Assembly: GCA_015654675.1 (NCBI GenBank)
Contig: JAATGM010000003.1
Location: 1 to 52,524, forward strand
Source: Planctomycetota bacterium
GTDB taxonomy: Bacteria; Planctomycetota; Phycisphaerae; UBA1845; UTPLA1
Reading direction: 5' to 3'
DNA: 52,524 bases
In this document: positions 8,268-12,040 of the stretch, one piece after another
How the letters are laid out: each line of letters starts with the position of its first letter
How positions within the stretch are numbered: position 1 is the first letter of the stretch
Position numbers and translations under genes: made by a program
Notes under the pieces: model-generated
Seen by the model: the letters and a program-made list of their open reading frames with translations, nothing else
What the model was told of the DNA's origin: nothing
Databases searched by the model: none

Positions 8268-9995
8268 TCATGCCCTGTCCGGGATCTGCTTCAGCGCGTC
8301 CTCAATTGCGGCGATCAGCGGCGAAAACGTCTCCGCCGAAAAATCAAACCGTGCACCGGCCGTCGAAAACAATTCCGGCAGCGGCCGGCTGCCGCCCAGC
8401 GCCAGCGCCGCCCGATAGTCGTTCACAGACTTGGCGTAGTCGCGCAGCGAGTTCCGCCAAACCATGAGCGCCCCCAATTGCGCAATCCCATACTCCACGT
8501 AATAGAACGGGTGCGTGAATGGATGCAGCTGCCGGTGCCAGTGCCAGGCCCGCGCATCCTCATAGCCCGAGAAATCCTCCAGGCCGCCAAAGCGAGCCCG
8601 AATCGCCAGCCACGCGGCCTTCCGCTCTTCGCGTGTGTGCGCCGGATGCGTATAGATCCAGTGCTGGAACGCATCGACCGTCGCCATCCACGGAAAAAAG
8701 ATCACAATGCCTTCGAGCTGCTCGCGCCGCGCGCGGTCGAAATCCTTCCCCTGGTAGAACTCATCCAGCCGATCAATGGCCAGCATCTCCATCCCCATCG
8801 ACGCCACTTCGGCAAACTCGATCGGCGAATGCCGATAGGCCGCCAGCGGCTCACCGCGCGTCGCGAAGGCGTGGAACGCATGCCCACCCTCATGCAGCAG
8901 CGTCTCGACGTCGCGATGCTGCCCCACGGCGTTCATGAAGATAAACGGCACGCGCCGCACCTCGTACGTCGTCATGTATCCGCCCGGCGCCTTGCCCTTG
9001 CGGCTGTCCAGGTCGAGCAAGCCCGCCCGATTCATATGCTCAAACTGCTTCGCCAGCTCGGGAGAAATGCGCTGAAAAATCCGCTGACAACCGGCCACCA
9101 GCGAATCGGTCTGCTCAAACGGCCGAAGCGGCGGCCGGTTCCGCACATCCACGGACAGGTCCCACGGCCGAAGCTTATCGACACCCAGCGCGGCGGCTCG
9201 CCGGCGATGCAGCTCGCGCGCCGCCGGCACGCCCACGCGCTCGACGGTGGCATGAAACCGCTCGCAATCCGCCGGCGAATAGTCGAACCGCTCCATGTCG
9301 CGGAAGGCGTAGTCGCGGTAGTCCCGGCACCCGGCATTCACGGCGATCTGGTGCCGCAGGCGGACCATCTCGTCGAAAATCGTGTCCAGCGCATCGCGGT
9401 CGCGCAACCGCCGCGCCGAAACCTTTTCCCACGCCTCCTGCCGCCGCGCCCGGTCCGACAAATCCAGATACCGCCCGGCCTGCTCCAGCGTCTGCTCGCG
9501 ACCGTCGATTTCAACGGTCATCGCCCCACACATCTTCTGATATTGCTGCCGAAGCTTCTCGTCCTCGGTTTGAAGCGGCACATTCTCATCGCGGAAGATC
9601 TCAACGCGATTGCGAACCCGCCGCATCAGCACGCCAAAGCGCCGCGGATCAAGCTCGGCATGCGGCGGACAGGCCAGCAGCTTGCGATCAAGCCGATCCC
9701 ACTCGATCCGCGACGGCGGAACGACCACCTCCAGGAAGTCGATATACGCCTTTTCCTTGACGACGTCGTCCGTCGCACAGGTCATCGCGACCTCGCGAAT
9801 ATTTCGCTCTTCATCCAGCGCCGACTGAAGCTCGGAACAATCCTCCAGCCATCGCTCCAAATCGGACCGCGACGTCAGCGGCCGCGCCGCGAGGTCGTCA
9901 AAATAGGGCTTCACCGCCCCCCAATCACCGAAGTTGTCGGCCGGCCGGACAAATCGCATCGGCGGCGGGCCGAAGCCGTTTTCGGATGTGGACAT
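8268..9995 (-). CDS. M3-family oligoendopeptidase
   Basis: 575 residues starting at 9995, chosen because GGAAGGGAG lies just upstream; an in-frame start 54 bases earlier has no such site and adds unrelated sequence. The zinc motif HEGGHAFHAF begins at His368, with a later Glu in the helix FAEVASMGMEML as in the M3 family (thimet oligopeptidase/PepF). These are cytoplasmic enzymes that trim short peptides. There is no signal peptide. The overall length and the C-terminal GYEDARAWHWHRQLHPF region fit PepF-like enzymes. The upstream 500 bases lack a clear protein gene but contain a candidate RNA unit ending just before it. Confidence 0.88.
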   Translation of the reverse strand: MSTSENGFGPPPMRFVRPADNFGDWGAVKPYFDDLAARPLTSRSDLERWLEDCSELQSALDEERNIREVAMTCATDDVVKEKAYIDFLEVVVPPSRIEWDRLDRKLLACPPHAELDPRRFGVLMRRVRNRVEIFRDENVPLQTEDEKLRQQYQKMCGAMTVEIDGREQTLEQAGRYLDLSDRARRQEAWEKVSARRLRDRDALDTIFDEMVRLRHQIAVNAGCRDYRDYAFRDMERFDYSPADCERFHATVERVGVPAARELHRRRAAALGVDKLRPWDLSVDVRNRPPLRPFEQTDSLVAGCQRIFQRISPELAKQFEHMNRAGLLDLDSRKGKAPGGYMTTYEVRRVPFIFMNAVGQHRDVETLLHEGGHAFHAFATRGEPLAAYRHSPIEFAEVASMGMEMLAIDRLDEFYQGKDFDRARREQLEGIVIFFPWMATVDAFQHWIYTHPAHTREERKAAWLAIRARFGGLEDFSGYEDARAWHWHRQLHPFTHPFYYVEYGIAQLGALMVWRNSLRDYAKSVNDYRAALALGGSRPLPELFSTAGARFDFSAETFSPLIAAIEDALKQIPDRA

Positions 9996-10065: not shown

Positions 10066-10118
10066 AAAAAAGGCGTGCGGCACCCTGTTTGGTTTTGGCG
10101 CGGTCAAAGGGTGCCGCA
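10066..10118 (-). terminator. Intrinsic terminator-like hairpin
   Basis: A perfect 11-bp inverted repeat, TGCGGCACCCT (10076-10086) and AGGGTGCCGCA (10108-10118), with a 21-base loop. On the minus strand it is followed by CGCC and then six T residues. The four-base gap before the T-run is slightly long for a textbook terminator. Confidence 0.45.
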
Positions 10119-10349
10119 GCGAGTGGAAGATTGGTCTTCCGTATAAGACCGGCAGACGCCTCCACCGATCGGAAGTTGTCGAACTTGGCTCGACTGGCCC
10201 GGCAGGCACTGAGAAGCAATCCTCGATACGCATACCACTTCGGATCGCGTACCGCTGAGTCCCCAAAGCGCCGACGCCGTCTCACAGGTCGGGCCGGCAG
10301 GTCCCGTGCAAGTACCCATTGGAATGGCTACAAAACACGTATCCTGCCT
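10066..10349 (-). ncRNA. Candidate structured non-coding RNA or long leader
   Basis: The minus strand shows a plausible promoter at 10356-10383, about 280 bases of hairpin-rich sequence, and a terminator-like hairpin followed by TTTTTT at 10066-10071. Internal structure includes GGTCTT/AAGACC (10133-10138 and 10145-10150, six-base loop) and a long-range 10-bp pairing with one mismatch, GATCCGAAGT with ACTTCCGATC (minus-strand sense). No known RNA family (RNase P, SRP, tmRNA, 6S) was recognised. It could instead be a dispersed repeat or a decayed reading frame. Confidence 0.35.
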
Positions 10350-10355
10350 AAGTTA

Positions 10356-10383
10356 ATGCTATCATCGTCAAAGTGAAAGACAA
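10356..10383 (-). promoter_or_regulatory. Candidate promoter of the minus-strand RNA unit
   Basis: On the minus strand TTGTCT (10378-10383) and TAGCAT (10356-10361) are separated by 16 bases. Each matches the sigma-70 consensus at four of six positions. The surroundings are AT-rich compared with the rest of the window. Confidence 0.3.
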
Positions 10384-10503: not shown

Positions 10504-11028
10504 CTATCCAGCGGCAGCGCGGGTGATTCGCCGCGCGCCCCACACAAAGCCGTCGAGATCCTGAAAGTCCCACGCCGCCCGTTCGACAAGTCGGCCGGCG
10601 CGATCGCGCACCGTCGCGCCATGATGATCGACCAGCGCCCGCACCGCGAATCGATCGCAGCGCGATTCCTTCTGTCGCGGGTTTCGCCGCGCCCGGAACA
10701 CCAGCCAATGATAGAACTCGTGCAAAAAGACGAACAACGCCAGCCGCTCCGCGTCCGGCACATCCACTGTGTAAAGCTCGCGCCACCACTGCCGCGCATT
10801 GCTCTCGGCCCGCGCGATGCACGTCGTCAGCCGATACGGAAACACCACCGCCCGGCCGATGTTGAGCAGAATGCGCCCTTCGCGATAGTAACACAGCCCC
10901 GAAAACGGAGCCGTCCGCGAATGGCGCACGAACACGCGCAGCCCGCCGTGCTCCCAGTCTGTCGTGTGCCGGTTGAACAGCTCCACCAGTGCCGAAGTCG
11001 AGAGCGATGTTGAATTGCGAAGAATCAT
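10504..11028 (-). CDS. Uncharacterised small HExxH protein
   Basis: 174 residues starting MILRNSTSLSTS at 11028, ten bases after the stop of the KpsF-like gene, so it is probably in the same operon. The middle is LFVFLHEFYHWLVF, a hydrophobic helix with a zinc-protease motif HEFYH at residues 103-107. KESRCDRFA follows, and its Glu121 could be a third metal ligand. This spacing fits a compact gluzincin-like or SprT-like peptidase core, but I do not recognise the family. There is no signal peptide or membrane segment other than the HExxH helix. A longer frame upstream would overlap the isomerase gene and was not used. The function is unknown. Confidence 0.6.
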   Translation of the reverse strand: MILRNSTSLSTSALVELFNRHTTDWEHGGLRVFVRHSRTAPFSGLCYYREGRILLNIGRAVVFPYRLTTCIARAESNARQWWRELYTVDVPDAERLALFVFLHEFYHWLVFRARRNPRQKESRCDRFAVRALVDHHGATVRDRAGRLVERAAWDFQDLDGFVWGARRITRAAAG

Positions 11029-11038
11029 CGGCCGCGCT

Positions 11039-12040
11039 TCAGGAAATGCCCGCTCGCACGAGGTCCTGAAGCCGGACCACGCCGACCGGCGCCCCCGCCT
11101 CATCGGTCACCACCAGCGACGTGATCATTTGCGTTCGCACGATTTCCAGACACCCGATTGCCAGCATCTCCGGCGTCACCGTCGAGATCTTCACCTGCAC
11201 CTCATCCGGATCGCGCCGGCTGAGCCGCCACGCCTCGCGCGCCGCCAGCTTCATCGGCTGGTCGTTGCGCTCCAACAGGCGTCGCAGGTCGCCCTCAGTA
11301 AAGACGCCGAACAGCTTGCCCGCCGGATCGACCAGGCAGACCATCCCCAGGTGCTTCGCCGTCATCTCGTGCAACAACTCGCGAAAGCCCGAGTCGAGCC
11401 CGGCCCGCGGCAGGTCCCGCCCGCCGTGCATGATGTCGCTCGCCCGCGTCAGCAGCCGCCGCCCAAGCGAGCCCTCCGGATGGAACCGGGCGAAGTCCTC
11501 TTCCTTGAACCCACGGCCGTCGAGCAGCGCCATCGCCAAAGCGTCGCCCAGCGCCAGCATCAGTGTCGTGCTCGTGGTCGGCGCCAGCGACAGCGGCCCG
11601 GCCTCGGGATGCGCCGGCAGCGCGATCGCAACATCCGACAATTCGGTCAGCGGGCAGGCCTTCCCTTCACAGATCGCAATGACATGGCCGCCGACACGGC
11701 GGAAATGATTGGCAAAGCGCACCAGTTCTTCGGTCTGGCCGCTCTTGGAGAGCGCAACCAGCAGGTCATCCGGTCCGACCATCCCCAGATCGCCATGCAG
11801 CCCCTCGACCGGGTGCATGTACACCGCGGCGGTGCCCGTGCTCGAAAGCGTCGCGGCGATCTTGCGCGCGATCAGCCCGCTCTTGCCCAACCCGGAAACC
11901 ACCACCCGCCCACCGGAGGGCATGGCCAAAATGCGCCGCACAGCCGCAGCGAACGAGTCGCCCAGTAACCGCGCGAGGTCGGTCAGCGCGCGGGCCTCCT
12001 CTTCGATGACGCTGCGTCCGAGCGCGATGGGATCGCTCAA
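11039..12040 (-). CDS. kdsD: KpsF/GutQ-type arabinose-5-phosphate isomerase
   Basis: 333 residues. It interconverts ribulose 5-phosphate and arabinose 5-phosphate, the first step to KDO, a sugar of lipopolysaccharide and some capsules. The N-terminal SIS domain shows VVVSGLGKSGLIARKIAATL and ALSKSGQTEEL, with the conserved histidine region MHPVEGLHGDLG. Two CBS domains fill the C-terminal third (for example HLGMVCLVDPAGKLFGVFTE). The start is a TTG at 12040, supported by GGGAG seven bases upstream; the next ATG would cut into the SIS domain. It lies downstream of the Wzc-like gene but behind a terminator-like hairpin, so it probably has its own promoter. Confidence 0.88.
   Translation of the reverse strand: MSDPIALGRSVIEEEARALTDLARLLGDSFAAAVRRILAMPSGGRVVVSGLGKSGLIARKIAATLSSTGTAAVYMHPVEGLHGDLGMVGPDDLLVALSKSGQTEELVRFANHFRRVGGHVIAICEGKACPLTELSDVAIALPAHPEAGPLSLAPTTSTTLMLALGDALAMALLDGRGFKEEDFARFHPEGSLGRRLLTRASDIMHGGRDLPRAGLDSGFRELLHEMTAKHLGMVCLVDPAGKLFGVFTEGDLRRLLERNDQPMKLAAREAWRLSRRDPDEVQVKISTVTPEMLAIGCLEIVRTQMITSLVVTDEAGAPVGVVRLQDLVRAGIS

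What the first reader, a model, noticed from the sequence alone, without database searches (positions are those of the whole stretch)
10066..10349. Candidate structured RNA unit upstream of the M3 peptidase
A promoter-like pair, nested inverted repeats and a terminator-like hairpin with a T-run define a minus-strand unit of about 280 bases with no convincing protein. It could be a small RNA, a leader that controls the peptidase gene, or a copy of an unknown repeat.
Basis: partly seen in the sequence, partly recalled or inferred. Interest (0 to 1): 0.55.

Follow-up and report, generated by a model that had tools for sequence, protein, structure and literature searches.

The report
Order-wide conserved planctomycete small RNA
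This stretch looks like the gene for a small non-coding RNA whose last 65 bases are almost unchanged across one order of uncultured planctomycete bacteria, which suggests an important but still unknown regulatory job.

Summary
The minus-strand unit ends in a 64-nt module (10129-10066): CUUCCACUCGC, an 11-bp stem, a loop holding ACCGCGCC, and a T-run. A covariance model found it in 101 of 114 genomes of the same order (63 of 65 good ones, 78 of 85 genera) and in none of 293 other genomes of the phylum sample. It has no credible Rfam match. The order is probably UBA1845, class Phycisphaerae.

Upstream of the module the sequence is variable but tends to fold better than shuffles, and mostly follows a sigma-70-like promoter; the window's own promoter is weak. 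Neighbouring genes differ between families, and no reading frame is kept. It is best read as an independent small RNA gene, not an order-wide peptidase leader, not a repeat, not 6S or SRP RNA. No Hfq was found in 25 genomes.

A divergent second form lies about 75 nt behind a small protein gene in four loci, near a response regulator.

Function is inferred only: a regulatory RNA whose invariant 3' module binds a conserved partner. Two exact-complement searches named no target.

The parts
10066..10350 (-). Whole predicted small RNA, about 285 nt
   Evidence: 3' end: hairpin plus T-run; 5' end inferred from the weak promoter pair; z = -3.9 for 10066-10349. No transcript data.
10130..10350 (-). 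Variable 5' domain
   Evidence: No convincing blastn match in relatives; 5' domains of 38 relatives in three groups show little sequence agreement but predicted 5' domains fold better than shuffles, mean z -1.89 over 68
10066..10129 (-). Hyperconserved 3' module
   Evidence: CM R1: 97.0 bits here; 101 of 114 order genomes
10119..10129 (-). Conserved CUUCCACUCGC, mostly single-stranded, possible pairing or binding element
   Evidence: Columns 4-14 are 96-100% conserved in A4. Its last two bases may extend the stem (pairs 13-62 and 14-61).
10108..10118 (-). 5' arm of the stem, TGCGGCACCCT
10087..10107 (-). Loop with the invariant ACCGCGCC
   Evidence: ACCGCGCC in 38 of 40 rows of A2 tested; the two without it are matches judged spurious. 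The 90 of 90 is partly built in, because the pattern contains ACCGCGCC.
10076..10086 (-). 3' arm of the stem, AGGGTGCCGCA
10066..10071 (-). T-run (terminator-like)
   Evidence: T-run columns 81-99% T in A4
10356..10383 (-). Weak promoter-like pair TTGTCT-16-TAGCAT
   Evidence: 8 of 12 consensus bases; not found
8268..9995 (-). M3 family peptidase gene downstream (neighbour, not part of the RNA)
   Evidence: PF01432, E = 9.2e-48
10504..11103 (-). 199-aa protein with an HEFYH motif upstream (neighbour)
   Evidence: No Pfam family at E <= 0.01; homologues beside the RNA in 14 of 17 family genomes

Best explanation
An independent small non-coding RNA gene, conserved through one order of Phycisphaerae. 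Shown by sequence comparison: a nearly invariant 3' module, a variable but folded 5' domain, a promoter-like pair upstream in most relatives, and no kept reading frame. Inferred: the module is both the intrinsic terminator and the working part. Its single-stranded CUUCCACUCGC and its ACCGCGCC loop are read by a conserved partner without Hfq; the partner is either a protein or a set of mRNAs. The variable 5' domain would be a folded cap or spacer. In the second form the same module follows a small protein gene next to a LuxR-type response regulator, which hints at a link with two-component signalling.
For: Order-wide: 101 of 114 genomes, 63 of 65 good ones, one copy in 97 of the 101. 47 of 75 columns of alignment A1 (19 sequences) invariant. 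Stem paired in 99.7% of 1112 cells, with two pairs changed on both sides in 5 cells. Promoter score at or above 9.5 within 200 nt upstream in 58 of 74 loci, against 22% of mononucleotide shuffles. In the window's family TTGACA-17-TATAAT stands at -133 to -194 in five loci. Predicted 5' domains: mean z -1.89, 26 of 68 below -2. In the family the RNA stays 86-97% identical, while the adjacent proteins are 53-63% identical. No frame. No credible Rfam match. 6S and SRP candidates are elsewhere. Second form: stop codon to stem 73-80 nt in four loci; a response regulator 57-60% identical to that of L108 in three more loci.
Against: No transcript has been seen. The window's own promoter is poor. Covariation is slight because the stem hardly varies: the number of pair types does not exceed shuffles (466 of 500 reach it), and one slid control (-3) also shows two pairs changed on both sides, though only 38% of its cells pair. 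A DNA-level constraint is therefore not fully excluded. Exact 11-mer complements of the two conserved stretches are only modestly above the reversed-pattern control, RNA genes themselves included (118 against 87; 184 against 141), and the 65 sites inspected name no target. 13 of 114 order genomes lack it, two of them good assemblies. The role of the 5' domain is a guess.
Confidence: 0.6

Rival explanations
1. A cis-acting leader or attenuator of the downstream M3 peptidase gene.
For: M3 follows the RNA in 8 of 17 family genomes; only 70 nt separate T-run and start codon.
Against: The module occurs in all eight families listed for the order, and no held locus outside the window's family has M3 nearby (flanks differ in length). 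It ends in a terminator-like hairpin; I showed no alternative antiterminator pairing.
Confidence: 0.08
2. A protein-binding RNA that works as a sponge or an RNP scaffold, as 6S or CsrB do, rather than by base pairing.
For: Both stem arms and the loop are fixed in sequence, not just in pairing, as expected for a protein contact; no Hfq in 25 genomes.
Against: No partner is known; no repeated binding motif in the conserved module as in CsrB (my reading; CsrB recalled).
Confidence: 0.25
3. A conserved DNA site (palindrome bound by a chromosome or regulatory protein) that happens to lie behind a promoter.
For: Very high identity, one copy in most genomes, perfect palindrome.
Against: Changes in the stem keep the pairing (A-U to G-C in four distinct rows, C-G to U-A in one); loop motif and flanking single strand are as fixed as the arms; promoter-like pair and T-run are on one strand.
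Confidence: 0.06
4. A short conserved peptide gene.
For: ORFs of 67-124 aa cross the unit.
Against: The matching part is mainly the module, and ORFs of two different frames match there; the stretch between ACCGCGCC and the 3' arm varies from 8 to 13 nt.
Confidence: 0.02

Closest known systems
Trans-acting bacterial sRNAs with a conserved 3' seed-and-terminator end (ArcZ, SdsR, RprA; recalled, not compared by a call)
   Same: Own promoter, variable or dispensable 5' part, conserved 3' end with terminator
   Different: Those depend on Hfq (recalled); no Hfq found here in 25 genomes. Here stem and loop are nearly invariant. No credible Rfam match.
3'UTR-derived sRNAs (recalled)
   Same: In the second form the stem lies 73-80 nt behind a small protein gene
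   Different: The main form mostly has a promoter-like pair of its own and no coding part
6S RNA (RF00013)
   Same: Small, one per genome, possibly protein-binding
   Different: A separate 6S-like locus exists at G000:C18:101814-102005 (43.2 bits, below the 46.4 cut-off)
Bacterial small SRP RNA (RF00169)
   Same: Small conserved RNA
   Different: The SRP RNA is at G000:C14:47040-47138, above cut-off

Membership tests
Bacterial small regulatory RNA (kind, not a family) | Conserved non-coding unit between a promoter and an intrinsic terminator | tested here: met
   promoter-like pair in 58 of 74 loci, the window's own is weak and missed by the standard scan
Bacterial small regulatory RNA (kind, not a family) | A discrete transcript is made | not testable with these tools
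   No RNA data held
Bacterial small regulatory RNA (kind, not a family) | Regulates targets in trans | tested here: inconclusive
   11-mer complement search in 17 genomes, 65 of 118 sites inspected, no recurrent site at a gene start; second search only counted
Any Rfam family | Match at or near the gathering score | tested here: not met
   Only EFASI at 13.8 bits (cut-off 51.2, E = 7.2) over part of the unit; none at gathering in the window; none on the units of 20 relatives' loci at E <= 1
6S RNA | Matches RF00013 | tested here: not met
   no match in the unit; one search finds the 6S candidate elsewhere
Small SRP RNA | Matches RF00169 | tested here: not met
   no match in the unit; one search finds it elsewhere
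Hfq-dependent sRNA | Host has Hfq | tested here: not met
   PF17209 in 0 of 25 genomes; the control rings in 5 of 14
cis-regulatory leader of M3 peptidase | Always upstream of that gene | tested here: not met
   8 of 17 genomes in the family, none of the other held loci
Dispersed repeat | Several copies in the genome | tested here: not met
   One copy in G000; four of 114 genomes have two

The most novel reading that the evidence does not exclude
The module is the core of an order-specific, Hfq-independent RNA regulon or RNP: one hyperconserved RNA whose invariant hairpin and single strand are read by a dedicated partner, with a second form wired into a small protein and LuxR response regulator operon.
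Probability: 0.25. Interest if true: 0.7.

Novelty: new member of a known kind. Interest (0 to 1): 0.52.

Why it matters
The listings of four paper searches showed no report that I recognised of a small RNA from this order, and the unit has no credible Rfam match in the window or on 20 relatives' loci. An RNA kept nearly letter for letter across 78 genera, in bacteria where no Hfq was found (25 genomes), would be a good entry point to RNA regulation without Hfq. The module is also a possible genomic marker for the order.

Tried and rejected
Peptidase leader, repeat, peptide, 6S and SRP RNA: rejected as above. Spread beyond the order: in the class search 91 of 397 genomes matched at E <= 0.01. 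89 of these are in the order; nine order genomes without a match are listed, and 286 unmatched genomes are not listed. Two of the 89 (G277, G395) are marginal and lack the hairpin or loop by eye; the two outside the order (G193, G391, 24-25 bits) lack the loop motif. With looser filters the 13 order genomes without the RNA gave only weak matches in four (E 0.004 to 0.96). Named genomes: 94 stretches matched the pattern, and 90 were confirmed by the covariance model (76 of 80, 14 of 14); the four others (Anaerolineae, Microbacterium, Bacteroidetes, Hymenobacter) are taken as chance. My first pattern had a wrong gap and found nothing. One viral scan found nothing.

Targets: GCGAGTGGAAG in 17 genomes, 118 sites with the RNA genes included, against 87 for the reversed pattern. 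I looked at 65 of the 118, on loci L172-L240; four more of those 69 loci proved to be the RNA itself. Most lie inside open frames of 80 codons or more. Some recur in like genes (an SEWK-type coding stretch; NrdR- and SmpB-like genes, names recalled), but inside the frames, not at the gene start. TTGGCGCGGTC: 184 against 141, sites not inspected. A 16-base complement 32 nt before a thiolase-like start codon in G395 (name by my reading) lies in the end of an overlapping frame, and G395 lacks the RNA; kept only as a lead. One cluster of downstream 'proteins' looks like an artefact of frames running through the RNA itself.

Second form: of 23 genomes with the small protein, the RNA follows it in 4, the four best-scoring ones. 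The fifth divergent copy (G410) has no such protein among the loci searched. The divergent copy of G018 (48.7 bits) is not counted as second form.

Full report
What is there. The window lies in a 4.93 Mb genome of 62 contigs. The window's own promoter is weak.

It is conserved. A blastn search with the 301-nt unit found its last part, about 65 nt, at 81-97% identity in 56 relatives, so in 57 of 61 genomes with the own one. The tally of 60 of 61 at E <= 0.1 in that call includes three weak matches elsewhere in the query, and one genome has none. An alignment of 19 sequences is invariant at 47 of 75 columns. A covariance model built from it found the module in 101 of 114 genomes of the order, 63 of 65 good assemblies and 78 of 85 genera. 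It found only the window's own genome among 294 of the phylum (only 20 of the 293 others are listed, all of the same class), and nothing convincing outside the order in the class sample. A repeat with looser filters on the 13 genomes without it added nothing convincing. Named relatives include Phycisphaerales bacterium UBA1845, fen_1342 and CP030884. A paper on Phycisphaerae (PMC11266412, passages seen) places the family FEN-1342 in the order UBA1845; that the window belongs there is inference from these names.

It is an RNA. In 90 aligned copies (86 distinct) the stem pairs in 99.7% of 1112 cells, against 28-58% when the partner is slid; two pairs are changed on both sides, in 5 cells, a number that 3 of 500 shuffles reach for pairs and none for cells. 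Against this, the number of pair types does not exceed shuffles, one slide (-3) also shows two such pairs, and the alignment was fitted to the structure, so this support is modest. The stretch between the loop motif and the 3' arm is 8-13 nt in 89 of 90 rows, which breaks any frame, and overlapping ORFs match relatives mainly across the module. Within 200 nt upstream of the module a sigma-70-like pair scores 9.5 or more in 58 of 74 loci, against 22% of mononucleotide shuffles (76 distinct loci, two with too little upstream sequence dropped). The -10 box lies 44 to 194 nt upstream. Predicted 5' domains (68 loci with a good promoter; the others dropped) are 32-183 nt, median 66, and fold with mean z -1.89, median -1.64, 26 of 68 below -2. 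In the 38 loci of three groups aligned, their sequences show little agreement.

It is not tied to one gene. No cluster of neighbouring proteins spans more than 15 of 79 loci. A 6S-like and an SRP RNA lie elsewhere. Rfam has no match at gathering in the window, only a chance-level EFASI match at E = 7.2 over part of the unit, and none on the units of 20 relatives' loci. Hfq was not found in 25 genomes.

A second form. Four genomes hold two copies (G022, G324, G410, G412), and G040 holds only a divergent one. In four of these five divergent copies the stem begins 73-80 nt after the stop codon of a protein of about 100 aa without a Pfam family (one of them scanned). In four of five (L108, L082, L083, L250) a LuxR-type response regulator lies next to it, the three others 57-60% identical to that of L108 (the one of L083 checked in Pfam); in L250 it faces the other way. 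The fifth (L080) has a different reading that looks like a response regulator (my reading). The small protein occurs in 23 of 114 genomes, and the RNA follows it in 4.

How it may work. The shown part is a conserved RNA-like unit. That the 3' module is both terminator and working part, and that it is read by a protein or by mRNAs without Hfq, is inference from its fixed letters in stem, loop and single strand. Two exact-complement searches named no target.

Novelty. Four searches of open papers (listings seen, one paper in passages) showed no report of it that I recognised. It is best called a new family of a known kind, bacterial small RNAs.

Noticed in passing
L083:5780-6251 (+), L108, L080, L082: A protein family of about 100 aa (29 invariant columns in four sequences) with no Pfam match for the one scanned, in 23 of 114 order genomes
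   Followed up: partly
G000:C18:101814-102005: A 6S-like RNA under the Rfam cut-off; 16 of 21 genomes match at E <= 0.001, only 5 above the cut-off: the 6S model may score this lineage low
   Followed up: no
L246:324-356: In G294, where the RNA was not found, a terminator-like hairpin shows CTTCCACTCGC in its loop region
   Followed up: no
L056:1341-1436: In G395, where the RNA was not found, CTTCCACTCGCTGCGG stands without the hairpin, complementary to the stretch before a thiolase-like start codon
   Followed up: partly
L004, L008, L077, L118, L124, L146 upstream of the RNA: Members of the window's family share a strong promoter of the type TTGACA(c)GTAA to TATAATGTTA, better kept than the transcribed 5' domain
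   Followed up: partly
L110, L073, L072, L086, L142, L128 upstream of the RNA: In part of one other family a gene with a receiver domain (by my reading of one sequence) stands in the opposite direction upstream of the RNA
   Followed up: no
window:10504-11103: 199-aa protein with an HEFYH motif and no Pfam family, beside the RNA in 14 of 17 family genomes
   Followed up: partly
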